NCBI GenBank assembly: GCA_018902915.1
Contig: JAHIPS010000092.1
Span: 1 to 42,332 of the forward strand
From: Candidatus Omnitrophota bacterium
Lineage (GTDB): Bacteria; Omnitrophota; Gorgyraeia; Gorgyraeales; Gorgyraeaceae
Reading direction: 5' to 3'
Length of the DNA: 42,332 nucleotides
The notes below the pieces were generated by a model. That model was not told the origin of the DNA. It saw nothing but the letters and a program-made list of their open reading frames with translations, and ran no database searches. The position numbers were made by a program, and so were the translations under genes. This document shows, piece by piece, positions 3 to 42,332 of this stretch; positions within the stretch are counted from its first letter, which is position 1; each line of letters opens with the position of its first letter.

Positions 3-345
3 CATGTTGACAAAACTGTTGAAAAGATACCATCTACTGCCAAGATTGTCTCCTTGGGTTCCTGTGGTGGCTACAACAATGTTGATGCCATACTTCGAAA
101 ATCTCCCAACAGCCATTTCATTGGTACTAAAGGAAAAGGTACAATGTGGGTCAATGATCCCCTACTTAAGATGTTAAATGGGCAGATACTAACTGGTAAA
201 GATATCCATTGGCCAAGTTTTTGGACTGAAGCAGAAGCACGACTAGGAGGAAATGGTGATTTTCGTAATTATATCAGCCCTCACAGAAACTTAGGGGTGT
301 TATTTCTGAAAGCGTATAATCAACAGATATCCAAACAACCAAAAC
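3..345 (+). other. C-terminal piece of a possible clan CD (caspase/gingipain-fold) peptidase-like domain
   Basis: The first 114 residues contain KIVSLGSCGGY, with the cysteine at residue 21 at the end of a hydrophobic strand. FIGTKGKGTMWVNDPLL follows, then a GKDIHWPSFW segment. A strand ending in a small-residue-plus-Cys-Gly motif is how the nucleophile of caspase, gingipain and clostripain-like (clan CD) peptidases is presented. The catalytic histidine would lie upstream, outside the window, so it cannot be checked. It could also be an unrelated alpha/beta domain. Confidence 0.35.
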
Positions 346-3300
346 AAACTGGAATGCTCCAAGCCCCTGATGGCCAGATCCAGGTTGGGCAGGTTGTTGA
401 GCCACAGACAATACAGCAAGCCCCTGATGCCGTCATCCGTGATCAGAAACTATTTAATGAATTGGAAAAAGGCGAAGTCCTGCCGAAGTTTAAAAAAGAG
501 ACTACTCAGGAAGAGGTGCTGGGCCAGATTGAGCGGTCTTTAGATGGAACACTAAAAGTATTAAAAGATAAGCTTACGCCTGAAGCATATGCCAAACTCG
601 AGAAGATATTTAACGAGATAAAAGCCAATGTCAAGTTTGCGCCGATAACAGATGACAGACATCCGGACAAACTCGCATATACAGATATAGCAACAAACAT
701 GATATACATAAGACCTAAAAATCAGGGGATAGGGTTTGCCCTTACCGTTCTTAATGAGTATCTCGGACATGCAGAGTTTAAAGAAGAAAGAGAGGCGTTA
801 AACGAGGTTTTGAGCCCTGAGGCGACAAGGTTCGTTGAAGAGACAGTGAGCCTTGTAAAAGCAAAGAAATTCGTGGTTGATATCCTCGGAGTCAGTAATT
901 TCATGGAATTCGCGACAGATGCATTTTCCGGTAAATCCGAGTCAGTTTATGCAAAGGAATGGAAACACATAGCGTCTCTTATCGCGAGCGGCGAACTTGC
1001 AAAAGCAGTGTTTATCACATACGGCTTTAGCGCGTCATTAGGAGGCTTTACTGAAGTCAAGGATGCACTGGTAAGTATAATTTCAGGATGGAAAAAGGAA
1101 TTATCGAGTAAGGAATCGACAAAAACCCCGCAGGAGAAGCAGGAGATTTTAGAAGTAATAAGCTTGCTTGAGCAGGCATTGCCAAGGGAGTATGAAACCT
1201 TGGGCAAGAGTTATGATGGCATGGGAAGACTGGAAAAGATCACTTATATATTAAAAGGAGAGAGCGGAGCTATTATAGATACAGTTATTAACAAATACGA
1301 ATATGATGATGAGACAGGAGACATCTGGGTAAGTGGAAGGATATTATTGGGCAATACCTCAGCGACTGATGAGGAACTGAGGGTGAAGATTGGCGCAGAC
1401 GGCATACCTGACCTGTCTACCGCGCAGTTTGCCACAGGAGAGCACGCAGGAGAACAGGCAACATCAATCACATACACAGATCGCATTAACGGTTTTACGG
1501 AAGTAAGGGATTTGAAGACGGAAACTCGTGCGGTCTATAAAGAAGGAAGAATTTTATATGAAACTGTAGGTGGAATAACGACAAAGTTCTGGTCGTATGA
1601 TAAGGAAGGAAACCCGACAGACAAAGTTGAGCGCGTCGGGAGCACTGATAGAGCAATACGCTATGAATTCATCAAGGAAAAGGAAGACTTTACTACAGAA
1701 GGCACAGCTATCCGTATCCGCGAGACAAAAGATGGCACTTTGAGTTTTGAACCTGAAGAAATAAAGATCCTTCCTGGCGAAGAAAAGGAATTATTTGGAT
1801 CGGAAGGCATGAAGGTTAGCATCGCGGTTCCTAATGATAAGAGTTCTGTAACATTAAAATTAAGGTTTGACTCTAAACAGGACAAATGGATATGGTCAGA
1901 TCAGGAGGTGGATATAAGCGGCTGCACGATTAAATGGGAAATTGCCGGACAGCCGTTTTCAGCTGTGTTAGCTCAAGGAGCTAAGTTTGTAGTATCCGAT
2001 GGCAAGGCTGACATAGAAGGATTAGCCAAATACGAAGATCAACCGGAGGCTAAAACAAATCAAGAGAAGATATTAGCTTTTATAGAAGAAAAAGGTGGCC
2101 TGCCTTCTTCAGAACAAGTTAATACAGTAGCGACTATGAGAGATCACCCGAATAAAGATTTCGCAAAATTAAAGTTACTGGTAATGAAGCAGGCAGGGGA
2201 TTGGATAGTGATTAAATCTAGCATGCCAAGCATAGGCATAGGGTCAGATCTAAGGTGTGATTCATATGGATATACAGATACAAACGCGATTACTTATAAA
2301 AATGGAGGATTTAAGATAACAGATAAGGGCAGGGAATTTAAGAAAGACACATACGCTAATGGAATTCGTATATATCAGCTTATAGTTGAAGCAGGAAAGG
2401 ATATCAAGACTATAGCCGATGCTACCTTAAAATGCAGGGATAAAGGGCTTGTTTTTGATGGCGAATACTGGAAGACAGCTGAAGGAACAAAAGTCTCTGA
2501 TATTATGGTTTCAGGTAAACTCGAGAGTCATTATCTTGGAACATCATATCCTGCTATGGTTTTTGACAAGAATCCTCGAGTTGATGATAAAGGATATATA
2601 TTCTTGGTAGCAAGGGATGGTCAAATTGTACACCAGAGCAAAATAGGCGACAATCCTATAATCTTACCTGGGACACAGACTAATGTCAAGAGAGGTCAGA
2701 TAGGAAATACTGATTTTAGCTTAATCGATGCCAGAGGCAATGATTCGGTAGGTAATCCTTTGCAGTTAGAGCTGTTGGTTTATGGAGACAACGGCGTCCT
2801 TCCTTTAGTAAATACGAATGGTGCCGTAAATTGGCTTGATACGGGAACAATAGAGATAGGAGACAATACATATACCAATAAAGGAAAGGCCTTTGATTTT
2901 GCCGTTTACTTTACAGAGACAGGTCCGCGACATTTACATGGTAAGGGTGAAATGAATCTTAGCATAAAAGATGGCACGGAACGCAAGGTATTAGAATGCG
3001 AAGGCAGTCACTTTAAGACTGACAAGTTTGAAGGATTTTTGAGCATGGTGACAGATATTGAAGAGTTATCTAAAACTACGGACCAGAAAAAAAATGTATA
3101 TATTTATGCCTTTGATGAAAATAGAAAATTACAACTCGCAACCGATGGTGTTACTAAAGGAGATATTTCACATCACATAAAAGAGCCTGATATAAATTCT
3201 TTTACGGTAACCTCTAAGACATACAACCGGCGCATCGGAGAAAAAGACATGTCCATTGCTGTTTTAGCGTTGGAGCTTGCGCCTGGTAAAAAAGCCCATC

Positions 3301-9300: not shown

Positions 9301-12300
9301 ATGAGGAAGCAGACGAGAAGTCCATGGAAGAGACTGTTGATAGTATATTGCGCGAGGCAGAGATTGAATATGAGATAGGAATCCATGCCAAGGTTATAGT
9401 GGGCCTTGATGGTAAAACAAAGATGGTGATACCAGAGGATAGACATGGAAAAGAACTCATCGCAGAGATGTATAAAAACTTTTCCTCTAATGGCAAATAC
9501 AGGGAATTGGGAAAAGGGTTTGTGCCTGAGTACAGCATAATAGAGGGCTTTACAGGCGGGAAGAGCATACCTTGTATCGGGGTTTTGTATCGAGGTGAAA
9601 CAGCTATACCTGAGACTTTAGAAGAGAAAATAGAGAGATTATTAAGAGAAGACAATATAAAAGTAAGAGAAGACAATATAAAAGATGCCGAAGGTTTTAT
9701 TGGGGAGGCTAAGAAATTAGTCGAGGCTTTAGCCGCAAGAGAACATAAGGGCAAATACGTATTTTTTGATGGGTCACATCCTTCCGGTTATGACATAATC
9801 TTTGACGTGCCGAACTTAAAGGTGCGGGATTCCGCTGTGAAGCCTGTAGAAAAAGAAGCAGTCCTTAAGCAGATAGATATTGATTTTAAGGCAATAAAGA
9901 ATGTCGTAGTTGTCGAGAGAGATATAAGGAATTATATAGCTGATATAAAGAATGGCCGTATAAGAGGAGCGCCTTTTAAGATTCCTGAAGATACCCGTCC
10001 GGATATAGTCATTGCATTCAATTCAATAAAGAATTTGCCCGCCGAATCATTAATGCGCCTTTCAGAAAAAGACATAGAAATTATATTCGAATCCGCTCGA
10101 GATGTTTATAAGGGTTATAGAGAGGGCTACAGAGAATTTGAAGACCAGCTTATTTCCGCAAGGGTTAAGATTGTCTCCAGAAAAGAAGGCCTTAAGCAAG
10201 GCATGGAAGGCGTGCTGGAAGAGGTCAGTTTTGTTTCAGCCATTAACTGCGGCGTTGTTTCTCTTAAGGCGTGGTTAAAAGAGATGACAGGTAATGATGT
10301 ATCTTCAAGAAATCTCGCAAGGGAACTTACAGAGGTTATTATAAAGAAGATCAGGGACAATAAAGACCTAGCCAGTAAGATTATTGAGAAGGCTGGCCAG
10401 GACAAGATTATTGCGTCTGCATTAACAGAAGTGGCCCGGAAGTCTTATGGCCAGCCTATGAGGGTTGTAAAACTCGATAGGGAAGCCCTTGGGAAAATAA
10501 AAGTCCCAATCATAATAGGTATTGTGCATCCTGATGAGCATTTCCTGGTGGGCATAGGTAAATCCGGAGACTATATCATTACACTTACAGCTAACGGCAC
10601 ACTGGAGATAGGTGTACCAATAGATGAGTTAATCAGAAAAGAGATAGGTGTATCAATAGATGAGTTAATCAGAAAAAGAAAAGGTGAAACGATTTACGCA
10701 ATAGTCCCTGCTACTTATGATGGAGAAGGAGAAGATGTATCAGCGGATGAAGTATTTGGCGCAAGCCCTGATGTTATATTCAATACTGTCAAATATATAG
10801 ATCCGCGAGAGGTAGAATATTTCAGAATTAGAGGCGCCCAGACTTTGCCAGTCAAGGAGATAAAATCGGCCTTGCTCCCGCAAACAGCCGATGAAACCCC
10901 GGGCGCCCTTAATCCTGCATTTGAAGGGTTGGTAGAGAGATTGCGCAGGGTTTTGGTAATACCTGCTGCAGTCAGAGTCAGCGAAGGAGCTGCAGTCAGC
11001 GAAAAAGAATTACGTAAGGTTAAAAAAGAATTACGTAAGGTTGCTCCTTTGATGAATGAGATAGAGGATGTAGTGCGGGCCAATCCTGAAGAATTTATAT
11101 CAAGCCGCGATGTTATAGGACAGATACTTTTTGACAGCTTAGGCCCTGAAAACTTAGGCCCTGAAGTAGATATCAAGGGCTATCTCAATGATCTTGAGGA
11201 TCTGGCCATGGAAGAGATTAATCGTAAGAGGCCGGCAGTAATTCGCGCAAAGGAGTCGTTGAGAACAAGACTTGTTAGAAGCGCTAAATTAACAACTCGC
11301 TTTATCCTTTCTCCTGCAAGAGCTCTAATGTTATTCCTGGTTTTCCTCAGCGTGCTCAGCATGATAATAGTAACCGTGCCTTTACAAGCTGAAACAGGTA
11401 AGATCTCAGGGCCTGGTATAACAGCGCCTCCTGTGTATGTTTCAGTTCCGTTCTGGAAGATAAAAGCCGTACAAGAATCATACAAGAAGACACAAGATTA
11501 TATAAGGAAAGTAGATGAACGAATATATGGTTTAGCTGAGCAAAGGGCTGAAGAAAAAGAAGAGTTAGGGAAAGAAGATGATGTAGATGCAAAGCTTGCT
11601 TTGCCAGAAGGCGATTTAGGCAGCAGAGCAAGCTCTGCAGCTACGCATGACGTATTGCCAGCGCAAGGCGCTGCAACTACAGATGTTGCCCAACAGGCAG
11701 CGCAAGGCGCTGCAACTACAGAGCAGTCTTTTATGGATAGTTCTATCCAGAGGATTGTCGAAGAATATAAAGAAGAGGCCCAAAAAGGTTCGAAAATAGT
11801 TGCCCTGCAGAGATTTTACAACATAATTATGCTGTCTGACGAAGAGTCAGGTATTTTACAGATTGTTTGTGAGGGTAATAAGAACCTTAAACCTCATCCA
11901 TATCAATCCCTTAGATATGATCTTAAGGGGCTTTTGGATGCTTACGAGAAAGGCGAGATTAAATTCCTACCTGAGGGTTCAGATGAAAGAGTCAGGTATA
12001 GCTATGATAATCACGACCTTAATCGGATCGACCTTAAGGACTGGTTTAGAGAAGGCAAATTCCAGATTTTTGATGTCAGGACAGGCGAAGAAATTCATTC
12101 CATATTGCAGTATGAATTAAGAGACCGCGTGTTCAATTATGATGAAGATATGCGCATATTGATACCAAAGGATAAAGTCGAAGAGTATGAGCTGGATGAG
12201 CGTAAGAACATGAGGACCTTTATCATACCCGGCGATACCCGGATTGACAGAGAAAAGATTAATACTGTTGAAGATATATTAGGCCAGGGTGGAAAAGAGA

Positions 12301-15300
12301 TAATGTCAGGTATTAATGCTCAGGAATTAAAAGTCCAGCGGATATTAGAAGCTGTAAAGATATCGGAAAAGAAGTTGAATATAGATCAAAAGATTATGTA
12401 TGCTATTTTAGTATCCGAAGACGGTGTGCCGTTACGTTTTTATGCTGATAAAGAAAGGATGGATAAAGATATAAGGTATATCGAGGAAAATCTACTGCAA
12501 GGCGCAAGGATGGCGCTGGGCGATGAGTATGTATTGACTCTGAACGGCCATGAGTTCGACGGTCATGTCGTAGCGCTTATAAAGGACAGGGACAATAACG
12601 TCAAAAAAGTCTGGGAGGAGAAATCAGACAGGGTTTCAATGTGGTCATACGAGGATGGCAGATGGGTTCCTGAAGAGGTGGCAGGTTCACCTGATGATAT
12701 AAGGAAGGATATAAAAAAGGATGCCTTATATATAGTATCTTCTGGAAATAAAGAAACCGGGATTAATTACAAGATCCTGACAGAGAAAGAGCTCAAGTTG
12801 TACAATTTCACCCCGAGCACGATGATTGACAAAGGGACAGGCTATGAGCTCCTTATGAGTTATGACGCTGAGGATATAGAGAAGGCCAAGGAAGATTTAG
12901 AGGAATTACAGGACGGTTCTTATTTGAGGCAGTTAGGAGAGACGGCGAATGTTGATATAGGAGGAAAAGAAAAGACGCGCAAGGCTTATGAGACAATGAT
13001 AGCCGGCTGGGGCGGAGAAATTAGTAATGGACGCATTGTTAAAAGATACTTTAATGTTAAAGACCTGCCTTCTCCAGAAGAGATATTCCAGACAGAAAAT
13101 GAGGCGTGGTATAGAAAAGGCGCTGAGATAAGGGATAGGTCCGGGAAATTGACAGGTTACAAAAAAGGCAATCTAATTGTTTATGGGGAATTGGCTGCAA
13201 AACACAACTTGAAACTTCAGCTGCAGAAGAGAGTCAATATGGAAAAAGGAGCACTTGGTATTCTGGAAGGAAAGGTTATAAGAACCAATCTCAGGACAGG
13301 TCAGACAGCGGTTTTTACAGGCAATTTATATGTAGATAGGTATAAAGAGAGGATAGATATAGATACCTATGATTCGATAACAAATTCCTTCATATGGAAT
13401 TATAAAGGCACAGATTATCTTGTTACTATAGAAGACGGCGTAAAAGAAGGCTTAGCCAAGCGGGCAAAAAGAGAAGAGCGTAATCTTAAAAACGTAAAAA
13501 ATCTTACAAAAGTTCAATTAGGTGGAGGATTCCTTGTTAGAAATTTCATACCTTCGAAGATCAGGATAGAGGAAGAAGAAGAGACAGTAAAGACAAGGGT
13601 TATTTCTGAAAGTAAAATTCCAGAGGCCTTGCGGCCGCGTGATACTAGATTATTGCGTGGTATCGGAGCTATCAATATCCTGCCCGAGGATCTTATATTC
13701 ATACCTGGCATAAAATTTAATGCAGAAGACATGGATCTTACGCCCACTCTTACGTTTAACTTGCCTGTAAACGTAGAGGTAGGCAAGGCCTTGATAGAAA
13801 GCGGCATAAGCGGATTGGCTAATTTTACCAATCCTTTTGCTGACATAAAGAGCGAAAGAGAGACTTATCAAAAATATCTGATCCATCTGAAGGCGATTAG
13901 AAGCCGTGACGCTGTAAATGTTGGAGAAAAAGATATCAATAAAGAGATAGAGCATGTAGAGAGATTGCTAAACGCTTTACCGTCAGGACCAGTAAAGAGT
14001 TATATCATTGGCGAGAAGGTAAAGGCTACCTTGCCCGTGGGCCAGAATTGCAGGATTTACATATTTGGCCAGGGACTACAGCAGGCAGGGCCTGATTTTG
14101 GAGAAAAACAAAGAAAAGAGGCAAGGCTCGCTTTTGTATTCGGAGAAAACGAGGCCTATGTATTGAAGAGTTACGGCGACAGATATAAGTCGTTTAACTG
14201 GTTCAGTATAGGCGAAGGGAAAGAAACAACAGAATACGGCATAAAATTTGCAAAACCCATAGATCTAGACAATCTGAAAATAGGATTAAATCCATTTGTG
14301 CTGAAAGACGATAAGGGCGCTAATCTGGGAATAGCTATCCCTGTAAGTTATAGCGCCAATTTGCCCGGCTTGAACGCCAGGATAACAGGAGGAGTTTCTC
14401 CTGTATTTACTAAAGAGCATTCACCTCTTATTGCCGGAAGCGTAGAGGCCTTATTCAAGGTTGCTGGAAACAATAACTTTGTTGCCAATATTACAGGGAC
14501 TAATAAAGGAGACATCCAATATACTCTGGCCCTTACCAATAAAGAAAATAAAAGCGGCATATTATTGCAATACAACCAAGTTTCAGGAGATACTTTTTTC
14601 AGAACGCCTTCAGGCGGCATATACAATAATACTGACTATATAATAGCGAAGGCATATAAAGGCAGCGTTGGTATATTTATTGCGCAGCCTACAGAACCAT
14701 ACCATAAACTGACCCCTCTTGGTTCAAAGGCAATGACTAAACCAGCAAAACTCATGCCGACAATAGGGATAGAGATAGGTACCCCTATAAAGGTCAAAAC
14801 TGCCGAAGAAAAGGCTAAAGAGAAACTCAGAAAGCATACAGAAGAGAAATTTAATACCTTTCTTAGCAAATTGGAATCCGATAGAAAGATTAGTGCTGAG
14901 AAAAAAACTGCCATCTATCAAGCTTTCTGTCGCGAACTTGAAGGTTTAGACGCAGCAACAGGTTCCGATGTAGCGTTAGTTAATAGAAAATACTTTGAAT
15001 ATATGGATGCTTTGAGTGCAGAAATAGCCAGAGATGACGCTGAACAACAGTCTGCACAGATAGAGCAGATTGAAAAACCAGCTCCTGCAATAGAAAAGAG
15101 AACAGAAATAACCCAGCCTGAAAAACCAGCAAAGTATTTGAATCTGCAGAAAGAGGTAGAGAGTTTATTTGCAACGATCTATCCTAAGAAGACTCCTGAG
15201 CAAATAAGAGAACTTATCGGGGAACGCGTAAAAGATGATTTGGAAAAAACCAAAAAATTGCTCTTGAGGCTGGATAACGGTAAGACTATAACAGGAAAAG

Positions 15301-27300: not shown

Positions 27301-30300
27301 ACGTTAAAGATGAATTCTCCCGTTCCTATCCTGGCACAGTGGATAGGGTAAAGGATGAGGAACTTACACCTGATGTAAATATTACTGTTAGTGTAGATAG
27401 CGCTGGGAATATAGAGATAAATGATGGTGGCGCAGAAGAGACATTGGCTAGTGAAGAAAAAGAACTTCTCAAGCAGGCATTTTATAGCTGGGCTGTTGAA
27501 AATAATATAAAAGATATAAACATACCTTTACTTGTTACCTACAATATAGATAAGATAGCAGAACATAAACCAGACAGAATCGAGATAAATAGAATCCTAT
27601 TAAGGGCTCCACCTAAGCATTATGAAGAAAAGAAGACCACTCCAGATACACCCACCACCCACGAACTCTTCTTAAGAGGCATCCTAACCCATGAATTCAT
27701 ACACTTCTTAAATCCAGAAGCCTCAGAATCAAAGGCCCAGCAGCTAACAATAGAATATTACAGAGAACATCCAGAAGTCCTAGATGCAGTCCTGTACACC
27801 CTCAATCCTCAAAATATCAATCTTATAAATGCTAGTGAAGAATGGTTAAAGCGACTTATTGATTTACAGACTTCTGTCAGCGCATCGGCAGCCCTCGACA
27901 TACCCAAGGTCCTTGAGGAGTTCTACGAAGAAGGAAAGACTGCAGACCAGTTGAATGCAAGGCGTCTTGAAAAGCTTGAAGACAAGGATCTATTAAAGCC
28001 TTCAGAGTTTTTCTGGATGGAAGATGAGTTAGAGAAGACAGGTGTAGAATCCACTATAGAAAGCCTCTTAAAGGGAGAGCTAAATATCTACATCTACTCT
28101 GCAGGAGCAGCCTCAAGGATGATGAAGACCCTTGTTGGGTGCGAGTTGGTTACAAAAGAACAGTCCAGAAATCCAGAGATGCTGCGTAAGTATAGAAGGT
28201 GGAACACAGACATCTGGGAAATCGCTGAGATTGTAAGAGAAAATATAGACAATCTGAAAGCTTTGCCTGAAAAGAAAAGATTAGAACTTGAACAGAGCAA
28301 AGCAGAACTTGAAAAATTAAGCAAGGATGATAAGAGATATGAGAAGTTAAATGAGAGATGTAAGGAACTAGAAAATATTTTAGCAACCTTACCGCAATTA
28401 ATAGCACTACCCCAGCTTTATCCCCAGACCCCAGACTACGCAATAAATATGCCAATAGGACCTCGTCATTTAAAAGCCCTTACAGACGGTATAAAGGCCA
28501 TGGCAGAAAAATACAACTTTGATCCTGCAAAGGTATTGAAAAACCTCAAAGTGTCTTTAGGAGTCAACTCAGAGATCCTGGAAGATGTAGCTAAAGACTT
28601 AAATCAATATGACTTCTTCGGCCTTGACCCTGAAAATATAGTCCTGATAATGAACGACTTTGACTATGGATACAAGAGGGAAAAAGGTAAATTTGTGAAA
28701 ACTGATAAGATGACCAACTATAACCATGGCTTCAATGCAGTAAATGGCAATAAAGAGAATTCGAGCTATATCTATAATAAAGATATGCAAAAATTTGAAC
28801 TGCAGCAAAAGAAGGCCTTTGACTACCTGAGGGAGAAAGGCGCCAAGACATGCCTGATCCACCGTTCCAATGACCTTATAACAATGGTGCCTGAATGTAG
28901 CCTTGATATTGAGATGTATGCTGTATACAAGGAATTACACGAAAAACAAGGCGCAAACGTGCTTGTTGAGGTCTTAAATAACTTCACAGGCCAGAAAGGA
29001 GGCCTTCTTGCAGGACGTAAAGATGTAAAAGGCCCATTCGGCTTCTTAGTAGAAGGACTTGCCATAAAGACAGACAAGGTAAAAAATGCCCTTGCCAAAC
29101 TCAGAGCCCAATACCAGAAGCAAGACCTACCAGACATACCATATAACAGACTATACCAGTACTTTGACATAGAAGACCTCCAGGCAAACCTTGATAACAA
29201 TAACGGCATCCTCCCCATGTCTATCAAGGACGATAAACCCGAAAAAGGCATCTGGTCGCCAGAGATACCCACAGGAGACATGACCATATTAGAAGGCTTA
29301 AAGACAGTAGCAGTCATGAGAAGAAATGACTTCCTCATTGACAATAATGTGCTCCCGGAAGATAAACACTACACCAAAGGAGAGGGCTCCCTGATCCATG
29401 ACTTCAAGGAACTCAAGAACATCCTCGCAGGTTTGGCTGTGTTTGATAATCAAGATAAGAAGGGCGCGGAGACATTATATGTAGAACCAACTCATCCTAT
29501 TTGTATATTACTGGTAGGTCCGGCAGCATCTGGGAAGGGTACAAGCTCGAGGGTGTTGCATGATCTAAAACAGGGTCTTGTTCATATATCAACAGGAGAG
29601 ATTTTAAGGGAAGAACAGAGACACGACACTAACCTAGGTCAAAAGGCAACGTATTATATGGATAAAGGAGAACATGTTCCTGACGAGATAATAGTGGATA
29701 TTGTAGAGCAAAGGTTGAGTAAATTATTAAAGGAGGGTGTCACGGGTTTTATCTTTGATGGTTTTCCAAGAACAGAAACCCAGGCCGCACACCTTGATCA
29801 GATGCTTAAGAAGACAGGTTTGTCAGTAGATATTGTCATAGTCCATGATGCAGAACCAGCTACTGTAGAGGAGAGGAGAAAGCGTCGCATTGAAAGAGAT
29901 ATTAGAGATGGTTTGGATGAAAAAGAGAAGATAGAACTGGATAAATTGCTCAAACAGGCAGGCGTAAGGCTATACGAGGCATTTATACAGAGCGAAATAT
30001 GCAAAATAATCATAGAAGAACATAATAGAACAGTAAGACCTTCACCCGATTTGCAAATACTTGATGTCACAACAAGACAGGGACTCGAACCATATATTAA
30101 AAAAGGCACAAGAGGAAGACATGAGCCCAGGATAGCAGATGTAGACATAGATGCCTTTAGGCTAAGACAGGTGAAATACCAGGATACGTTGACTGGAATA
30201 TTGAAGTTTTATCCTTCATCATTGATCACTCGGATAGATGCTAATATAACAAAGGACAAACTTCCTTTGGTTATAGGTCCTGCTCTTAATTTTGCATTAG

Positions 30301-33300
30301 CACATAGGCACCTAACTGGCAGAATTAAGGAGTGGAATTTGTCAACAACCGGAGACGAAAAGATAGCCGCGTTAGAAGAGATAACTCGTTTATATAATCT
30401 TAGCGCTTTGGATAGTCTGAATCTTTATCAGGTGCTTGACCCAGAATGGAGAAATGAAGAATGGGAGTTTGCAGTTGCTGAATATAGGGATAATCCAACG
30501 CAGGAGAATAAGGATAAGGCAAAGGTAAGCATACAGAAATTTTTAGATGAGGAAAAAGAAAAATTATATATAGATAACAAAACACTCAGAGAAGATATTA
30601 ATAGATTTTCTGAGCGAATAGATTATTACTGGAAACTCAGATGGCTTTACTTCAATACCACAGTAGATGAGATTGATTCAGCTGCAAGAGAGTTAGCGTT
30701 AGATTGTATATTTACGTGTTTAGAAGGCAACACCGCCTCAGGCGATGTATTGTGGAAGAATGGAGAAGCAATATTGACAGAGATTATGGTGAGCAGGGAT
30801 AACAGGATTTGGAACCCAGCTTTGAATAAGGCGTTAGAGTTCCTGTCTAATGATAAAAAACGTGAATACTGGGAGAATGTCTCCGAGAGTTTAAATATTG
30901 TAAAGATCGAAGATAATCCTGAACTTGTAGATATAGTCGTTACTTTTATTGGAGACCCTTCGAATGACATACAGGCAAGGACGTGGTTGGCAAAGAAGGT
31001 AATACCAGAGATACTGGCAAGGCCAATAGAAGTAGGAGATGTACAGGAGAAACAAAAGATAGAAGATATCCGCTCCGAGCATATCAGGAGCCTGCTAGAA
31101 GAGTTTAAGATTGCAAGACACCATGATTTAAGAAAGGCCTTGGCCTATGCACTTGGGACTGCAGGAGATATAAGAATCAAAGATGATCTTATGGAGCAAT
31201 TAAAAATAAATAAGGATATGCAAACCCAAGGTGCTGTATCTTTAAATCAGACAAGCGCATTTGAGGCTTTATTTGGCAGGAGATCTGATATTATTAAGAT
31301 ATTAGGTATGTTGAAATACGACAGCTACCCTACTGAATTAAGAGACGAACTTATTTGGTTTGTGCTTTCTGGTAAAATAGACGGACCGCCAATACCAGCA
31401 AAGGCTATGGGAAGGGCTGAAGCTGCCTGCGAAGTTGCAGCGCAGACCCTTATAGATCTATCCGAATTTAATAAATGTAGGCCTGAGATAAAGCAGGATG
31501 TAGATGTCAATTTAGCAGGATTGCTTAATTGTCCAGCAAGAGCAAGGGACATAAAAGAGAAAATAATATCCTTAATAGAAGACAGGGGATCGATTTCAGC
31601 CTTGAAAGAAATGATAAGTAGCCTCGAAAGCTTCAGGGGTTACAATAGAAAGCGGGCAATATACGCCATTGAGTCTTCGGTTGGTATTTATTTCGATGAG
31701 CTTATAAATTATTTCTCGCTGAAGAGCAGGGATTATCAATTGAAGTCGGAGCGCGAGATATCTACGGCATCCATAGAGGAACTTTTAAATAGTACATCTA
31801 TGGGAGAAAACATAGAACTTGATGAGAGGACTGAACCAAATGGGGAAAAACAAAAGATTTTGGTAAGAGATGGAGTAATCTATGAGTATCAAGGTATCAT
31901 AGGTGATAGCCATTCAAACCCAATAGAAGATTATAAAGATATTAATTCAAAACAGCATATCATGGTTAAATCTGGAACTGATTACAGTATAATGATTGAA
32001 TTCATCGGAAATAAAATGTTTGCATTGGCAGGCCTTCCTGTCCCAAAGATGTCCATAGCAAAAGATAAAGAAGGCAGATTTAAGCTCATTATCGAGTATC
32101 TCGGGAATTATACAGGCAATGTTAGAAGAATGCCAAGAAGGTTTTATAATGATTCGAGTATAAAGGCAGCAGTGTTAACGAGCATGCTTTTAGATGACAG
32201 AGATAGAAGTCCGTGGAATATGATGTATATGAAAATACCTCTTAATATTACCAAACTCGGGATTGACGAGATAAAGAGATTGCATCTAATGCATATAGAT
32301 TTTGGAAGCAGTATGTTTTCTAAACCCACAACCGGATTTAGACCTTTTTATCCATACTTTAAAGGAAACATGAGAGACTTTATAATCAGTATTAGGCATA
32401 ATGCAAAGGTCGCAGTAAATCCGGCATATGAAAAGGCAATAGAAGATCCAGATCTAATGAAAGAGTTGGCCAGTATGCTTCAAGCCATCAGCGATAGGCA
32501 GATAGATTCGATTGTTGAGGTAGCTGTTAAAGAGGTGGGATTAGATAATAGCGAGAACGCAAAAAGGTATTTGAAAAACTGGATAAGATGGTGCGAGTTA
32601 GAAAACAAGAATGGTTCATGGAACAGAAAGGCAAGATTACTCAGAGCTGTGCCTATAGAGTTATTTAAACATATTTTGGTAAAAATCGATGAAGGCGGAA
32701 CCTTTGACAGCTGTCTTACTGATATGTTAAAAAACAGGCGCGATGATATAATCACCAAGGAATTCATACTGAGACCGACACTTTTTGATGCAGGGGGTGC
32801 ATTTTATGAGAAGGGTTATGAATATAAATGGGGGAAGACAAAAACTTTAAGCTCTAATATTAGAAGATACGATTTTACGGCTGTAGATAATACGAAGACA
32901 AAACACGAAGGGCATTTAATTGTTAAGATTTTAAGTGATTATGAATGGAAGGTTGAATTATATTATAACAGGCATAAGGAAAAAGAAGTGATTTTAAATA
33001 ACGTTGATGATATTGATACCGTTGAGATAAAAGTACATCTCTATCCGGCTACCATAGATAAAGCTTTCAAGGAGCACAAGTCTGATGTTAGGGCAACTGT
33101 TAATATAAGGTCAAAGGAGGTCGTTAATATAAAAGGTGTGCTTGATAAGAGACAAGAGGAATTACTTAGGCAGGCATTTTCGGCCTTGGCCATAGAGAAT
33201 GATATACAGGACATAGAAATACCGTTGCTTATAACTTCGAGTATGGACAGGATAGCAGAACATAAGCCAGATAGGATAGAGTTACATTGGCACTTATTAA

Positions 33301-36300
33301 GGGCACCTCCGGAGCATTATGAAGAAAAGCGTTCCTACCCGCATATACCCACAACCCATGAACTATTCTTAAAAGGTATTCTCCAGCATGAAATACTCCA
33401 TCTACTTAACCCAGAAACTCCGGAAAAGCATATCCAAAAGCTAACTATAGATTATTACAGGGAAAATCCGGACATCCTTGATGCAGTGCTTTATACCTTG
33501 AAGCCAGAAAACATAAATCTTATAAACGCTGATAGTGACTGGTTAGATCAACTTAGAAGATTAAGGGCAGAGATTGATAGAACAGCAGAGATGTTCATTG
33601 ATGGCATAAACATAAGCAGTAAGTGGATGGAAATGATAAAGTCACGCTCTTTGGGGGGTAGATTTACAGATGCAGATACAGGAGACGAGATAGAGATGTC
33701 TCTTGTTTTAGCCAGAAATGGTTCTATAAAATGCAAGCTGCATAACTTGACACAAAATAAAGAAAGCATTGAGGAGATAAAAGAGATTGATATACCCGGG
33801 ACTAATTTTACAAAGATGTTGAATCCATTAGCCCTAGGCTATAAGCAATCGAAAATTGGAAGACAGCCTGATCCTACTTCGCATAATGAAGAATGCCCTC
33901 TCTGCTGTTCAGAGCCTACTGTTCCTAGAAGTATACTTAACAGAAAACCTATGTTCGAGCTTGTTGTAAACAACAATGCATGGAAGGTATATCCTAAACG
34001 CAGATATTTTAATATTAGAGGACATCTACTTCTTATTCCAGATGTATCGCTTGCGCGAAACAAAAGAGGTCAGAATATTATCTATAGCGACATAAGAGAT
34101 GTTGTATCTATAAGCAATAGAAGCAGAAATATCTCTATAATGTACAATTCACCTCATGCTGGAGCAAGTGCAAATCATATACATTTACATATCTTTCATA
34201 AGGCTGAAGGATATGCCATTGAGAAAGTGAATTTCGATACCAAAGCAAATATTGGAGGGGTTAAGATTTCGAAATCAACAGATTATCCCATCCAGGTTAT
34301 TATGTTAGAATCAGGGGATGCTAGCCAGCTATCGCGAGTTGCCTTTAGTTTTATTGATAAATTACAACAGAAAGGCGTACCCTATAATCTTATGGTTACA
34401 GGAAACAAGATTTATATTATACCGCGCGATATAGAACATGAGGTTGTCAGTGAATTCAGGAAGAATATAGGTTCATTGGAGGTATGCGGTGAGTTTAATG
34501 TATCTGAGCCCAAGGAGTTTGAGGAGATTGATAAAGATAGCATTATTTCTGCATTGAATAAGATGAGTTTAACAGGCGAGCAGATACAGGTTTTAATTGA
34601 CGGCGTTTTAAATAAACAGGAAGAAATATTAACGCAGACAAATATATATAAGAATGAGTTTAAGATAAAACCCAATAACCCTGAGTTATTAAATAAACTT
34701 ACCCAGGATTTAGAGTCTGCCGATGCCAAAGAGAAGTTAGTATCTGCACTGGTTCTTATAGAGAATATGCTGGCCGAACCTGAGGCGAGATTAAAAGCCG
34801 CAGAGGTTATAAAAAATGCAGAGAAAACAGGCCTGTTCAGAAAAACAGATGAGCTTAAAGGCAGGATAGACCTTCATTGCCACACCTACTATTCTGACGG
34901 GTGGGGTACGCCATCAGGTATAGTCTACAATGCCTGGAGAGAGGGCATGAAGGCGGTCGGAGTTGTAGACCATAATACATTTGATGGGTTTTATGAGGCG
35001 TTAAAGGCTGGCAAGATATTAGGTATAGAGGTATTTGTAGGAACTGAGTTTGACCTTTATGATGATGATTTGGATATGAGTAATTTCCATCTGGTAGCTT
35101 ATTTACCAAACAAAGGCGGTCCTGAAGAATTCGTGCGCTGGCTCAATGCCTCTGAAGGATTAGAAGAGTTAAGAGCAAAGTTAAAAGAACTTACTGACAG
35201 ATACAGGACCAAGAATAAGGCATACAGGGTCGCATTTAATAGAAAATATAGAGGAAAGTTCCAAATATCTGACGAGGATCTAGTAGGTTACCTTACCCAG
35301 ATGCCTAATAGATACCAGATTGCCAAGGCGCTATTTGATAAGTATGGACCTGCGAAACTAGGTTTTTCAGAATTCAGGTCAGTGGCAGGCGAATATATAC
35401 CATTTGAAATGGTCCAGATGCGAGGAAGGGATGGTTTGGCTGTGCAGGATGTGCTTAAGATAATAACAAAGGCAGGAGGCGTAGTAATTATGCCTCATCC
35501 TGGAGAAAAACAGCATAACAAACCTCCTATGTTTCCAGAGGGTAAGGCTGAAGAGATACTCAAGAGATATGCTCAGTATATAAAAGGGGTTGAGGTTTAC
35601 TCAAGCAAACATAAGGAATTTACTCGTTTTGAACAGATGGTTGATAATTTAAACAGAACCAACCCTGTTTATAAGAAATTCCCTCTTATAGTAACATTGG
35701 GTTCAGATACGCATGACCAAAAAGGGATATTACTTGGACGGGGTGATGTAAGAGAGAATGTAAAAGGGAACCTTTTACTTTTAATAGATATAAACTCTAA
35801 TATGATAATCGAAAGTTTGAAGACATTGTTAACTAGAAAATCTGATATTTATGATAACATTTCTGTTCGTTTCCCCCCTCGACGAAACGACTTGAAAGAA
35901 GAAGATCTGCCAGGGCAAATAAGAGAATTTTGGCAGGATATACATCATGTTTACATGGATACTGACAAACCGGAATCTATTCGTCAAGAGGCATTGGAAA
36001 AGGTATTTCGCATTGCTGCAAGAAAGCATGATCTTGCAAAATATCCTCAGGCATTAGAGGTTTGGAAGAATGCCAAAGATATCCTGACAGAGATGTATAT
36101 AGGTCATGTGAAAGAGACATATGATTCTGCAATTCCGAATAAAGAAGTGCCTTGGATTCCAACCAGAAGAGAAATCTGGAAGCCAGCTTTGGAAATGGCT
36201 AAAGAGTGTTTTATGGACGTGGATGAAAATGGCATACCAAGACAATTTTGGGTCTATAGCCTAGTTGTGGAAGCGATCAAGCCGGCCATGCAGGTTGGAA

Positions 36301-39300
36301 AAGATGAATACAACAAAGAATTAGTTAAGGAGGTCGTTGGCTGGATGGATAGCAGTCAGCCCGAAACTCTTAAAATAATAGCAGCTGAGATGTTGGGAGA
36401 GATGGGAATTAAAGAAGCTATTAACCAATTGATAAAGGGCCTTGAGGCAGAGTCAAATCCATGGGTAGTTCAGCATTATATTAAAGCAATCAGGGCTTTA
36501 GGTATAAAAGGGCTATTACCGCAAGATGCAATACGGACATTATTAGAATTAGCTCAGGATTTTCCAGAAGAGCAAAAATCCATAGCAAAATCATTAATAG
36601 AGACATTAGGGGAGATTAAATACGGAAAGGAAGAAGGTTTGCTTAAGAGATCAAAGAAGATTTTAGTCAATGTTGCCCTCAATGCCAGAGATGTTGATCT
36701 GCGTGATACAGCTGTGCAGTCGCTCAATAACTTACCAGGCAAAGAGATGGAATATAAGAATAAATCTATATTTCAGAAGTCTATTACTAATATTATTTTA
36801 ATAACTATGTTAATATTTACACCAAGAGTAATAGCGAAGCTTTTACTTCTCGTGCTAAAAAACCCTGAAACAATCGAAAGGCTTACTGGGAGTTCATTGT
36901 CTAGGTTGATTAACTATTGGGCTCAAGGGTCTCGCTTATTTGCTCAAAAGGTGAATCTTCGTTCTCCAGAAGAGATTAAGAATATTGCTTCTGAGCATAC
37001 GGCTAAAGGCGAACCTATTCAAAAGAGACAATATAGGATTGAAGACTTAGAATATCTAAGGCCATTCTGGGAAGTAGGCGTAGTTCATTCTAATCCTATT
37101 GATTTATATTATATAAAAGGCAGAGATAAAGATGATCCAGATAACTGGGTTTTACTTAAAGGTGGCAATGACTATACTTTAAGCATGGATTATATCGGCA
37201 CAAGGATTTTCCAGTTGGCTGGTTTACCTACCCCTAATGTTTCATTGGTAAGGTTGCCGAGCGATGAATTGCGTCTGGCAATAGGTTTCTTAAGAGGGTA
37301 TCGTGACGGTGGATACAATTTACCAAAGAAATATCAAGAGGATCTGTTGATCCAATCAGGATTTGTTTTCGATGCTTTAATTAATTGCCAGGATCGTCAC
37401 CCCACTAATATGCTCTTTAAGACTATACCTTATAATGTTAATATCTGGACCTGGTTATGGAGAAAGATTAAAGGTAGAGAAGAATTTGTTGATAGGATAT
37501 TTGCTGACTTCGGAGCTAGTGGCATTTCCAGAGCAACTGGCGGTATTACAGAATTTCCCAAGGAGGTTACTGAAAAGGATCTGCTTATTATTTTATTAGG
37601 CGCGAGAAATACAGCATGGGGAGCTAAGATTCCAGAGGGAACTATGCTTCAAAACGCAGAATTTCCAAATCCGATTAATGAGGCCTATGGAGCATTAATT
37701 GCAGATTATCAAAAAGGAGGGAGGTTACTCCAGAATTTTGCAAGGGCCTTAAAGGCTATCACGGATGAGCAAATTGAAACGATAGTAAAATCAGCATATT
37801 TGCCTACCGGAGAGACAAGTAAGCAGCTTGTGGTAAGCTGGATTAAACAGTTAGAGATGGAATTATCCCATGGATTCTGGAATAGAAAAAAGCCCCGAGA
37901 TAGACAAAATGTTATTGAGATGCTGGAAGGAGATATGCAGTCCGAGGATTTCAAGGGCGATGTGCAGGATTTTATGATCAAGGCCTTAATCTTAAGAAGG
38001 GATACCTTAGTAAATCTAATAGAAGATTTAATTATAAGTTCTAGCCCACATAGGAAAGAGGAATATAAAGATGATATAAAAGAGGAAAAGATTCCTGAGA
38101 ATGTAATAGTAAAAAAAGATTCCGGATTTGGCGATTCTGCGGCTGAGGTCAGGGTTACTGTGGGCATTGACGGGAAGGTCAAGGGCGAACCCAGACTGTA
38201 TATCCATGGCCCGTTGTTCGAGGAATTCAGAGAAGCAGGTTTAGAAGGTATCTCAAGGGCTATCCTTAAGAAGGAGCTTAAACACATGGAAGATATAAAG
38301 AATGAAGCTTATGAGTTCAGGACATTGGCTAATCTTAAGATAGCTCATGAAAAGTCCATGGAGAGATACCCTGATTCTGATGAAACAAAGGAATTGGCAA
38401 AGGCCGTAGCAGCAGCATGGGATTGGTATGAAGCCCTGGGATATAAGGTGATGTATGACGATTTAATTATGCAGGGATTTAACCCTTTTAATCTCAGAGA
38501 GGCTGCTAACGAACAGTTTAAGAGGGGCAAGAACCTTTCGGGCAGCGCGCTTATGCAATTGGCACAGTTTATGGAGGGTGTCGAGGATAAAGGGATCGGG
38601 CTTTTTTATGCATCAGCCAGGGATTTAAAAGAAGGTAAAGGAACTATTGCAAAGGCCATAGAAACTGCGTTAAAGGATAGAGATTTTGAAGACTATTTGA
38701 AGAATATAATGCCAAAATTAAAACAATTCGACGAAATTGCTTATCTTGGTTTGGTTGTAGGAGAGATAAATGAAGAAACAGCGCTGATTTTTGGTCCATC
38801 TCTGCCGATTCCGCTTATAGATTTTGACCTTATAGATAAAAAGATACAAAAGAATAAAGCGACACTTAGATCAGTCAAATTAAAGAGGGATATTTTAGGA
38901 CCTTCCCAAAATCTTTTTATTAGACCAGAAAAGAAAGCGGTTTCAGTGGTTTCTCCAGATGAATTTGCTTCATTCACTGCCCATAAAGTAGCTGAAAAGA
39001 TAAGACAACTGCAGAAGGATTCTCAGCGGAGTGTAAATATTGTATTTGCTACCGGTAACACTATGATTGGCTTCCTGGATAATTTGGCAAGAGAGTCTGG
39101 TATTGATTGGTCAAGAGTTCAAGCATTTCATCTTGATGAATATAAAGGCCTGCCACCGGATAGCCCATATTCTTTTGCTTATTACTTAAACCAAAATATC
39201 TTCTCCAAGGTTCTTATCCCTGCTGAAAATATCCATTATATCAACGGTGCCAATCCTGACCTTAAGAGTTATATGGAAGAATTAAAAAGATATGGTGGAG

Positions 39301-42300
39301 CAGATATAGTTATTTTGGGAATAGGAAAGGATGGACACTTGGCATTTAATGAGCCTCCCCACTATTCAAGTTTTAATAGTCGTATGCAGGTGGTTGAGTT
39401 GGATGAGAGCACAATCGAGGCTAACGAACCAGATTATCCCGGTATTCGTGATATTCCTTACGCCATTACCATGGGTATGGCAGATATATTTGAAGGAAGG
39501 CACATCTTCTTTTTTGCTAATAAAGAGAAAAAAGCAGAAATAGTTAAGAAATCTTTCCTCGGGCCTGTTACTGAAGAAGTACCTGCCTCTATGTTACAAA
39601 GACATCCTTCTGTTACCGTTGTTCTTGATGAAGGAGCAGCCACTCTATTGCCAATTGATTCTCCTTTCAGGATAGATAAAAAGATGCAAAAGAATAAAGA
39701 GATACTTAGATCAGTCAAATTAGAGAAGGATATTTTTGGACCTTCCCAAAATCTTTTTATTAGACCAGAAAAGAAAGCGTTTTCAAAAGCATTAGAAAGA
39801 ATTGCATTTGTTTTGTCGCCGGATAGCCCCTTGCTTAAACAAAAAGATATCAGGCAGAAAATGCGTATATTAAAGAGGATTGGAGAAGATATACAGAGAA
39901 TAAAGTCATTTAGGGACAGGATAGATGCGGTTTTGAGTAAGATACGTTCATCCGGAACTATAAAGAAACAAGTTTTTAATCCGGAAGATCTTAAGATTCG
40001 CGAAATAGTGAGATCAGTCATGTCCATAGAGAAGGATTTAGAAAGCACGACAAGATTTCAACAATATAAATTGCGTATGCTGGAAGCAATTACTGTTTCA
40101 AAAAATCATATGGAAAAAGGAGATCTTTATTTAGCATCTGTTGCGTTGAAAGGTGCAAGATCTTTACTGAGCGAATATTTGAGATTTCTACATGGAGAAA
40201 CACATGTTATAGAAGAAGAGTTGAAGAAAGCCCAGACTCAACAGCGGCTGGAAGAAGAAAGGAATCGACCTGATTTTTCAGGCATAGAATGCCGTTCCAT
40301 TAGCACCTTAGAGTTAAAAAATATGTTGGAAGGTAAAATTATAGTTACGCCTACTGTGTTAGATAAAAGTCACGATGAACAGACTGAATTACCAATGCAT
40401 ATTCACGATGAGCATGATTTTATATATGATGCGGCTGACCCCAGGCCTTTAAGGAAGTGGTCTGATGAAAGGATGAAGAGGCTTTTGACTGCAGATGCTA
40501 TAAGGATAAATTCTCCCCCTGAGAGCTACCCGGCGTTCATGAAGAAGATTACAGAACGCAGAAGAGAGAAAGGAAATAACACAGTTCTTTTTTGCCTCCC
40601 GAACAAAGGTATCCCGATCCCACCGCAAATTATGAAGCAATTGATGGACATTCTCAGAGAAAATCCCGACATAAAGATAAATACAGGGACTAAAGATAAT
40701 AAAAAGGTATGGTCTATAGAAGAGAAGAAGAACCCTGCTTCTTCTCAATTCCAAAGTTTAAATCTGGAAGAATACGGAATTAAAAACCCCGAAGCTAAAA
40801 AACTAATTAATAGCATACTTTCAATAAAAGGAGTTAGTTTAGGGACACAGAAAGGAAGAATATTCTTTATATTTTCTTCTTCAATAGTTAGGATGAAAGA
40901 ACAAGTAGGGAAAATAAAGGGATTTAGCTTAGATGATGACTCAAAGCGACCGGGCAGATTTGACTTGTTTGATTTAGAAAGAAATGTAAGGGTTGCTAAG
41001 ATTGGTAAAGAAGACAAGATGATAGCTTTGGGACCAGGTAATCCCAATGATATAGAGAGTTTAAAATTTATAAAGAAATTTATAAGACATGTAATTATAA
41101 CACCTCGTAGGGCTAGAGAGGAAAAGCATTCATCAAATTGTAAAATTATGGACGGGTCTAAAGAAAAATATGATGCTGGCAAAATAGAGGATGATAATAG
41201 CAGTAATAGCAATGAGGACCGTGATATCTACTTTGGTTTTGGATTAGGTGTTGGGTTTGGACAAATAGTTAGGGTGATAAAACAGGCGATACAGAAATTT
41301 AAAGGGCTATTAATGCCGCAGGCATATCAGCATATTAGAGATATATGGAAAGTTGTAGCACACGCTATGTTTCCTAAAAAATATCCCCCTATCTTGGAAG
41401 AAAGACCACCTGAAATAATACCAATAGAGGAAAAGATAGAGGAAATAATCCCAGAAGAAATTGAAATTATTGACGAGGTTTTTGGATTAATAGACTTGGA
41501 GCCACTTAGTTTGGATGAAATTAGATATAGGATATATAAACAAAGGAAGTTGAAAAAGAGTAGTAGAGAAAGAAGCAGAGCTAGAGAGGAAATAGATACA
41601 GCAATTAAGAATTTGTTACAAGATGGCAGCATAGGATTTGGATATGATAGAGAAGTACCTTCAAAAAAGATATTTGTCTCATCAAAAAGAATAGAGGGTT
41701 TATTCAGAAAGGGAGAAATTATACGCTTTGCCTATCTTAATGAGCGCCAGCAGAGGATATATTGCACAAGAGAAGAGTTCGATGATTTGGAGGATAAGGG
41801 AAAGTTAACCAAGGTATATATTAAGAAGGGATTAGAAGAGTATTATCTTCAGAACGCCATAGATAAATTAGTAAAGAAGAATGAAATCTTAACCGCCATT
41901 GATAATAAGGGAGGGATGATTCAATTTTTAAGAGAGGTTAAGGATGATTTTCGCATAGAGGTATGCAATAAAAGGTTTGAAGAAGTCTTTACAACATGCG
42001 AGTTAAATAATCCTGAGAAGAAAGGAGAAGCTTATTTAATCCGCAACGCATATAAGATAGCCAGAGAGACTTATGAAAAAAGAGCCTTTTCTGCAAGCGG
42101 AGAATTATACCTGGAACATGTCTTAAATGTAATTGAAAGGTTGATAGAATGGGATATAGATGATGTGGATATATTAGTAGCAGCATTATTACACAAGATT
42201 TCTAAAACGAGGAGAAAAGGGATTTTTAAACCGCTAAAACATTCACTTAGAATTCTGGAAATTGTTAATAAATATGAACGGGCAAGTAATTTGGATTATC

Positions 42301-42332: not shown

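What the first reader, a model, noticed from the sequence alone, without database searches (positions are those of the whole stretch)
3..42332. The whole 42.3 kb window is a single open frame: a protein of at least 14,110 residues
No stop codon occurs in one frame over 14,110 codons. Motifs from unrelated enzyme families appear in that same frame along the full length, and neither edge shows a start or stop. This is about two fifths of the largest fully described Omnitrophota giant protein, so the true size may be much larger.
Basis: partly seen in the sequence, partly recalled or inferred. Interest (0 to 1): 0.95.

Follow-up and report, generated by a model that had tools for sequence, protein, structure and literature searches.

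The report
Giant bacterial protein with fungal-type glucan synthase
This stretch of DNA from an uncultured Omnitrophota bacterium is one uninterrupted coding frame, the middle of a protein of probably more than 20,000 residues; giant genes are known in this phylum, but this one contains a nearly complete sugar-polymer synthase of the kind known from fungal and plant cell walls, and almost every bacterial relative of that enzyme found here also sits inside a giant gene.

Summary
Confirmed: the whole contig is open in one frame (14,110 codons). The other five frames carry 399-1,368 stops, and codon usage alone picks this frame in 139 of 140 windows. The genome is Omnitrophota, in the same class as the 39,678-residue giant of V. 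archaeovorus. Ten contigs of this genome are wholly open. A same-family giant (21,570 aa) aligns in the same order and extends about 6,600 aa further upstream, so the full protein probably exceeds 21,000 aa.
Its core is a GT48 module homologous to yeast FKS1 (profile E about 5e-94). It keeps the D-x-N and ED catalytic motifs but has lost several UDP-glucose contacts. Two tandem (alpha/alpha)6 sugar-enzyme-like domains precede it, predicted outside the membrane; NagB-, adenylate kinase-, HIT- and PHP-like domains follow. Of 384 sampled genomes of the phylum 37 have a GT48 match, nearly always inside giant ORFs. In relatives, giant genes start with a shared leader, often just downstream of Tad-pilus genes.
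Most likely: an envelope-spanning single-chain polysaccharide synthase/modifier. Activity, product, processing and translation as one chain are not shown. Giant ORFs are known; the recurrent GT48 module is the new part.

The parts
3..42332 (+). Interior of a giant ORF (14,110 codons, open at both ends)
   Evidence: collinear relatives
537..1448 (+). Segment (aa 179-482) collinear with G386:C35 aa 6804-7105; fixes the window about 6,600 aa inside the homologous giant
   Evidence: blastp E 8e-9
11322..11378 (+). Hydrophobic segment (aa 3774-3792), internal signal-anchor-like; predicted crossing from cytoplasm to outside
   Evidence: Hydropathy scan, positive residues on the N side
11832..21296 (+). 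Predicted extracytoplasmic segment (aa 3944-7098) conserved in order in paralogue C101 of the same genome
   Evidence: blastp 30-38% identity, E down to 1e-162
13500..14702 (+). Region rich in amphipathic beta-strand-like stretches (aa 4500-4900), suspected beta-barrel; not supported by modelling
   Evidence: Reading of the sequence; AlphaFold model failed, mean pLDDT 36
16623..18002 (+). (alpha/alpha)6 toroid domain, copy 1 (aa 5541-6000)
   Evidence: AlphaFold pLDDT 84, pTM 0.87; Foldseek to AGE epimerases, GH76, GH88, GH94, GH8
18369..19676 (+). (alpha/alpha)6 toroid domain, copy 2 (aa 6123-6558), 50-51% identical to copy 1
21849..21905 (+). Single transmembrane helix (aa 7283-7301) that begins the synthase module
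   Evidence: Hydropathy; a single helix in the same relative place in 15 of 16 other GT48 giants
21906..22682 (+). Accessory domain (aa 7302-7560) conserved across GT48 giants
   Evidence: Alignment A7; sub-threshold matches to the FKS1-family motifs YDDVNQLF and KTYKE..SWLHL
22686..25979 (+). GT48 synthase: transmembrane helices, GT domain, transmembrane helices (aa 7562-8659)
   Evidence: Pfam PF02364 E 6.5e-27, own-genome hit at 23709-25193; profile to FKS1/GSC2 E 5e-94
24549..24977 (+). Catalytic signatures: K8183 (GK...Q), D8203-S-N8205 (DAN motif), E8298-D8299 (ED motif), K8323/R8325 (GKxR)
   Evidence: Alignment A1 against residues listed in PMC12715860
27690..27704 (+). HEXXH motif (aa 9230-9234), first of two similar metallopeptidase-like segments
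   Evidence: Sequence; no Pfam support
28407..29459 (+). Conserved domain (aa 9469-9819), nucleotidyltransferase-like by motif only
   Evidence: 34-37% identity to G061 and G100; not identified by Pfam or PDB
29511..29933 (+). Adenylate kinase-like domain (aa 9837-9977)
   Evidence: PF00406 E 2e-31, NCBIfam
31668..32756 (+). PI3/4-kinase-like segment, copy 1 (aa 10556-10918), weak
   Evidence: PF00454 E 0.008, below cut-off; internal duplicate at 36873-38015
33387..33401 (+). HEXXH motif (aa 11129-11133), second copy
   Evidence: Sequence
34317..34568 (+). HIT/ATP adenylyltransferase-like domain (aa 11439-11522)
   Evidence: PF09830 E 3e-5
34869..35177 (+). PHP phosphoesterase domain, N part (aa 11623-11725)
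   Evidence: PF02811 E 3e-11
36351..36566 (+). HEAT repeats (aa 12117-12188)
   Evidence: PF13646 E 1e-7
36873..38015 (+). Kinase-like segment, copy 2 (aa 12291-12671)
   Evidence: 31% identity to aa 10556-10918
38955..39605 (+). Glucosamine-6-phosphate deaminase (NagB)-like domain (aa 12985-13201), near full length
   Evidence: PF01182 E 7e-23; TIGR00502 E 1e-49, below its cut-off; PDB 2ri0 E 3e-35

Best explanation
The window is the middle of one of at least two paralogous giant genes of an Omnitrophota bacterium. The gene encodes a modular, membrane-anchored protein of probably more than 21,000 residues. Shown: the open frame, coding constraint, collinear relatives, the GT48 synthase module with most catalytic signatures, the two toroid domains, and a layout in which the toroids lie before a single membrane helix and the synthase after it. 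Inferred: the chain crosses the inner membrane near residue 3,780 and again at 7,283, so the toroids lie outside the cytoplasm. The GT48 part then takes a nucleotide sugar (UDP-glucose by analogy) in the cytosol, polymerises it and pushes the chain through its own membrane channel, and the tethered toroid domains cut or modify the emerging polymer. The product would be a beta-glucan-like surface polymer used in the coat or in attachment to prey or host. The downstream NagB-, kinase- and HIT-like domains may feed or regulate the process or may be independent enzymes carried on the chain.
For: Open frame and coding signal. Collinear homologues and paralogue. Phylum by named records. GT48: Pfam, profile to FKS1 and, more weakly, to cellulose synthase BcsA, conserved catalytic residues. 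GT48 in 37 of 384 genomes of the phylum, nearly always in long ORFs, none in 14 controls. The same order helix, accessory domain, helices, GT48, helices in other giants. The region 500-1,400 residues upstream of GT48 is homologous between giants. Toroids are sugar-enzyme folds; their stand-alone relative is PilZ, membrane helix, coiled coil, toroid, which places the toroid across the membrane from a PilZ domain. Shared leader at giant-gene starts and Tad neighbours in relatives.
Against: No activity, transcript or peptide data were available. The equivalents of three UDP-glucose contacts of FKS1 (Y849, E851, N1085) are not kept in the window. GT48 was not found in 13 other genomes of the same family, nor recognised in paralogue C101, so the synthase is not constant in these giants. 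An outer-membrane export barrel could not be confirmed. In L190 (G061) the relative of domain aa 9469-9819 follows a signal peptide, so the domains after GT48 may be extracytoplasmic rather than a cytosolic supply line. Topology rests on hydropathy and homology only.
Confidence: 0.5

Rival explanations
1. Predation weapon: the giant protein sits on the cell surface and degrades the envelope of prey cells, as proposed for V. archaeovorus. The enzyme-like domains are effectors acting on the prey, not parts of a synthesis pathway.
For: Literature proposal and threefold peptide increase in attached cells (PMC10066038). Giant genes lie next to Tad pilus genes, implicated in attachment, in several relatives. 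Toroid domains have a fold shared with hydrolases. A relative of one downstream domain carries a signal peptide.
Against: The only strong, recurrent enzyme in these frames is a synthase that needs a cytosolic nucleotide sugar. No Tad-type gene pair was recognised in the window's own genome. NagB- and adenylate-kinase-like domains use cytosolic substrates.
Confidence: 0.25
2. Polyprotein: the frame is translated once and then cut by its own or other peptidases into separate enzymes, so no giant molecule persists.
For: Two HEXXH segments lie in the frame (sequence). Domains belong to unrelated families. In L190 the chain is split into two genes after the GT48 region.
Against: The peptidase-like segments have no Pfam support. 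The order of modules is conserved, which a polyprotein does not require. No cleavage-site repeats were sought.
Confidence: 0.3
3. Drifting mosaic: giant frames grow by capturing fragments of ordinary genes, which then decay. Most domains are inactive filler in a long surface fibre or coat.
For: Homologous giants keep only 22-41% identity and swap modules. The adenylate-kinase match is incomplete in most models. Paralogue C101 has no recognisable GT48. Internal duplications.
Against: Codon-position constraint. NagB is nearly complete. Catalytic D-x-N and ED motifs and the conserved toroid residues are kept.
Confidence: 0.2
4. Assembly or binning artefact: chimeric contig or spurious open frame.
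For: Draft MAG of 128 contigs, 86% complete; both gene ends missing.
Against: Same module order in independent assemblies; ten wholly open contigs in this genome; very long ORFs in single-contig genomes of the class; uniform codon signal.
Confidence: 0.02

Closest known systems
Giant ORF of Candidatus Velamenicoccus archaeovorus LiM (39,678 aa) and other giant ORFs of Velamenicoccia (PMC10066038)
   Same: Same phylum and class, single frame of tens of kilobases, transmembrane helices, few annotated domains, poor conservation. A homologous leader occurs in the presumed V. archaeovorus giant ORF (39,687 codons, G075) and on two contigs of this genome.
   Different: G075 is not among the genomes with a GT48 match and shows no significant match to the window parts tested except stand-alone genes. 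The window's gene start is not on the contig, and no Tad gene pair was found in its genome.
Fungal 1,3-beta-glucan synthase FKS1/GSC2 (GT48)
   Same: About 600 aligned residues with flanking helices, DxN and ED motifs, GKxR and YGH motifs; accessory-domain motifs in the same order.
   Different: Part of a giant chain with other domains fused in front; DSN instead of DAN; Y849, E851 and N1085 equivalents lost in the window; fewer predicted helices after the GT domain. A Rho1-like regulator was not looked for.
Bacterial cellulose synthase systems (BcsA-BcsZ-BcsC)
   Same: Works like: membrane synthase plus an (alpha/alpha)6 sugar enzyme outside the membrane; the stand-alone toroid relative carries a PilZ domain.
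   Different: All in one chain; synthase of GT48, not GT2 (BcsA matches the profile only at E 3e-4); toroid not assignable to GH8; outer-membrane channel not shown.
Gigantic Omnitrophota proteins with Lipocone domains (PMC12419801)
   Same: Giant multidomain membrane proteins said to combine polysaccharide biosynthesis enzymes and peptidases.
   Different: That passage names histidine kinase relays, methylases and LysM domains and does not mention glucan synthase; Pfam showed none of those in the window.

Membership tests
Omnitrophota (Velamenicoccia-type) giant ORFs | Genome belongs to Omnitrophota | tested here: met
   Phylum-mates used in the search are identical to named Candidatus Omnitrophota contigs; the window genome is labelled the same class as many of them
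Omnitrophota (Velamenicoccia-type) giant ORFs | Single ORF longer than 20 kb | tested here: met
   42.3 kb
Omnitrophota (Velamenicoccia-type) giant ORFs | Multiple transmembrane segments | tested here: met
   11 hydropathy segments
Omnitrophota (Velamenicoccia-type) giant ORFs | No catalytic RNA (intron) inside | tested here: met
   No Rfam match
Omnitrophota (Velamenicoccia-type) giant ORFs | Shared N-terminal leader (feature found here) | tested here: inconclusive
   Gene start not on the contig; two leaders exist on other contigs of the genome (C20, C93)
Omnitrophota (Velamenicoccia-type) giant ORFs | Expressed as protein | not testable with these tools
   No omics data for this genome
GT48 1,3-beta-glucan synthase | Sequence above family cut-off | tested here: met
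   94.5 bits against a cut-off of 37.2
GT48 1,3-beta-glucan synthase | DAN-type and ED catalytic motifs | tested here: met
   D8203-S-N8205 and E8298-D8299
GT48 1,3-beta-glucan synthase | All listed UDP-glucose contacts (Y849, E851, K1082, N1085) | tested here: not met
   Only the K1082 equivalent is kept in the window; other giants keep more. So it is filed as a GT48 homologue, not as a proven 1,3-beta-glucan synthase
GT48 1,3-beta-glucan synthase | Accessory domain, helices, GT domain, helices | tested here: met
   Order conserved; accessory-domain similarity to FKS1 is sub-threshold
GT48 1,3-beta-glucan synthase | Makes 1,3-beta-glucan from UDP-glucose | not testable with these tools
   Needs biochemistry
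Bcs-like exporter (works-like comparison) | (alpha/alpha)6 enzyme outside the membrane | tested here: inconclusive
   Fold shown; location only inferred from hydropathy and the PilZ-TM-toroid relative
Bcs-like exporter (works-like comparison) | Outer-membrane beta-barrel channel | tested here: inconclusive
   Model of aa 4370-5000 failed, pLDDT 36
Tad-linked giant genes | Gene starts just downstream of TadB/TadC-like genes | tested here: not met
   True for G079, G077, G071, G075, G055, G147, and nearby in G100, G183. In the window's genome all 12 T2SSF hits lie in ORFs of 359-417 aa, two per ORF, unlike the single-domain TadB/TadC type of about 300 aa; leader contig C20 has other neighbours

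The most novel reading that the evidence does not exclude
Giant proteins of Omnitrophota and of some Elusimicrobiota relatives are envelope-spanning single-chain polysaccharide factories built around a bacterial branch of the GT48 (FKS1/callose synthase) family. They share a delivery leader and are genetically tied to Tad pili in many lineages. This would give a concrete biochemical role to giant genes and a bacterial relative of a family studied almost only in eukaryotes.
Probability: 0.3. Interest if true: 0.85.

Novelty: new variant of a known kind. Interest (0 to 1): 0.62.

Why it matters
What giant genes of Omnitrophota do is an open question; the main survey (PMC10066038) says their functions are difficult to assess because few domains are recognisable. 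A conserved module with known active-site residues, a conserved toroid pair with a stand-alone PilZ-linked relative, and a leader that marks gene starts next to Tad genes turn that question into testable ones: is a GT48 polymer made, where, and from what sugar? It also bears on where the eukaryotic GT48 family came from. No held paper combines 'glucan synthase' with 'Omnitrophota', but the key preprint on giant genes (10.1101/2023.11.21.568195) is not in the library, so priority could not be checked.

Tried and rejected
Linking the contig ends to other contigs by overlap: none. Structure model of the suspected beta-barrel: failed. Naming domain aa 9469-9819 as a UDP-sugar pyrophosphorylase: motif resemblance from memory only, no support from Pfam or PDB, so not claimed. 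SecA-like resemblance at aa 2300-2620 and cysteine-peptidase resemblance at aa 1-100: from memory, no Pfam hit, not claimed. Assigning the toroid to one GH family: only weak NCBIfam glucoamylase and GH8 hints, rejected as too weak. Defence-system reading: no PADLOC hit in the two thirds scanned. First alignment for the collection scan was too diverse and was replaced by a tighter one. The 42,913-codon ORF of G079 crosses a 100-N scaffold gap, so it is not used as proof of a single intact frame. Introns or tRNAs inside the frame: none.

Full report
OBSERVATION. The frame from 3 to 42332 on the + strand is open over 14,110 codons and runs off both ends. The window equals the whole contig C76 of a 1.80-Mb draft genome. 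The other five frames carry 399-1,368 stops. Scoring codon usage with stops ignored, against 350 ordinary ORFs of the same genome, this frame wins in 139 of 140 windows. Aligned codons of paralogues and relatives differ most at the third position. No tRNA and no Rfam element lies inside. The frame is therefore real coding sequence under protein-level constraint. Whether it is translated and kept as one chain cannot be seen from DNA.

WHERE IT BELONGS. GT48 contigs found in the phylum reappear with names in the public collection, mostly Candidatus Omnitrophota, two Elusimicrobiota by genus name (Proruminimicrobium, Endomicrobium), one labelled Planctomycetales and one Verrucomicrobiaceae. The window genome is in the same class as G075, a one-contig genome of 2.0 Mb with a 39,687-codon ORF whose leader match starts at 29,829. 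The published Tad locus of V. archaeovorus ends at 29,832 and its giant protein has 39,678 residues (PMC10066038), so G075 is almost certainly that organism (inference).

EXTENT. Ten contigs of this genome are open over all the sequence read, about 159 kb or 9% of the assembly (C69 was read for 20 of 24.9 kb). A same-family contig, G386:C35 (21,570 codons, also wholly open), matches the window in order from window aa 179 (its 6804) to 12,901 (its 19,796), so about 6,600 residues are missing upstream. Paralogue C101 matches aa 3944-7098 in order at 30-38% identity, and C64 matches the part of G386 that precedes C101's. Two leader-bearing starts exist on other contigs, C20 and C93, 62% identical. 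The simplest reading is at least two paralogous giant genes; which leader belongs to the window is unknown.

ANATOMY. The first 7,000 residues give no significant Pfam hit. A signal-anchor-like helix lies at aa 3774 and a second helix at 7283, with none between. Between them lie two tandem domains (aa 5541-6000, 6123-6558) whose model (pLDDT 84, pTM 0.87) matches (alpha/alpha)6 sugar enzymes: AGE epimerases, GH76, GH88, GH94 phosphorylase, GH8 and a beta-1,2-glucanase. Stand-alone relatives, mostly 650-690 residues, occur in most genomes tested, including this one and G075. Three that were read carry an N-terminal PilZ match (two above the Pfam cut-off, one just below), followed by a hydrophobic helix, a coiled coil and the toroid. 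This places the toroid across the membrane from the PilZ domain and agrees with the predicted topology.

THE SYNTHASE. Helix aa 7283 opens a module that ends near aa 8660. It contains Pfam GT48 (E 6.5e-27). A profile of 11 such modules finds fungal FKS1/GSC2 at E about 5e-94 over some 600 residues and bacterial cellulose synthase weakly at E 3e-4. The window keeps D8203-S-N8205, E8298-D8299, K8183, K8323 and R8325, but not the equivalents of Y849, E851 and N1085. The preceding 260 residues are homologous across the giants and show the FKS1-family motifs YDDVNQLF and KTYKE..SWLHL in the same order, though below significance. In 15 of 16 other GT48 giants a single helix stands before this domain, as in the window. 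The 500-1,400 residues before GT48 are also homologous between giants.

DISTRIBUTION. GT48 was found in 37 of 384 genomes of the phylum and in none of 14 control genomes. The matched frames are thousands of codons long in nearly all cases. In the named collection (84,980 genomes, two short peptide patterns, so a lower bound) 22 loci were confirmed, of which 20 lie in frames of at least 1,400 codons, limited by contig or fetched length; the exceptions are L196 (2,776 codons, closed at both ends) and L197 (696 codons). GT48 was not seen in 13 other genomes of the window's family and is not recognised in C101, although C101 has a similar helix, gap and helix spacing. The synthase slot therefore seems to diverge or to be exchanged.

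AFTER THE SYNTHASE. The frame continues with a conserved unidentified domain (aa 9469-9819), an adenylate-kinase-like domain, HIT- and PHP-like domains, HEAT repeats, two weak kinase-like copies and a nearly complete NagB-like domain. In L190 (G061) the relative of aa 9469-9819 is in the next gene behind a signal-peptide-like start. Hence the location of these domains is open.

GENE STARTS. Giant frames of G079, G077, G071, G205 and own contig C20 begin with a similar leader. Searching with it gives hits in 73 of 147 genomes at a loose threshold; the significant ones fall mostly in long frames, up to 45,379 codons in single-contig G073. In G079, G077 and G071 the gene lies directly behind two TadB/TadC-like genes (T2SSF domains). 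In G075, G055 and G147 a similar gene lies within about 2 kb upstream on the same strand, and within about 5-8 kb in G100 and G183. This genome shows no such pair, so the Tad link is a feature of relatives, not of the window.

MECHANISM AND STATUS. Shown: frame, constraint, relatives, domains, order. Inferred: topology, activity, product, role. The best-supported model is a single-chain polysaccharide synthase and modifier spanning the inner membrane, in the manner of Bcs systems. Membership as a proven 1,3-beta-glucan synthase is not claimed because listed substrate contacts are missing. The giant ORF itself is a known kind; the recurrent, nearly complete GT48 module and its fixed neighbours are, as far as the held literature shows, undescribed.

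Noticed in passing
G000 contigs C31 and C84: Two other wholly open contigs are paralogues of each other (29-34% identity), with a segment of about 700 residues repeated along C84, pointing to a further giant-gene family in this genome.
   Followed up: no
window 26040-27270 (aa 8680-9090): Repeated segment behind the synthase (QIHQDLQNAR and FISTLWNTLPQELTTALLDLNNNALTEAQKELF, three copies); a similar segment ends the GT48 chain in L190.
   Followed up: partly
window 27300-27900 and 33090-33600: Duplicated HEXXH-containing segment, suggesting internal duplication of a larger block.
   Followed up: no
G073:C1 around 1156742: A 45,379-codon open frame in a single-contig genome of the class, longer than the V. 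archaeovorus giant.
   Followed up: no
G339 contigs C5, C29, C4, C44, C48: Five leader hits in one genome, hence probably several giant genes.
   Followed up: no
L209, L200, L202: Widespread stand-alone protein of PilZ, membrane helix, coiled coil and (alpha/alpha)6 toroid; possibly a c-di-GMP-linked envelope sugar enzyme.
   Followed up: partly
L197 (Verrucomicrobiaceae record JAIYDP010000349.1): A GT48-like match in a frame of only 696 codons, the one confirmed case in the named collection not in a long frame.
   Followed up: no
L190 14202-16322: The gene overlapping the end of a GT48 giant chain begins with a signal-peptide-like start and continues with the domain that the window carries fused at aa 9469-9819.
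   Followed up: partly
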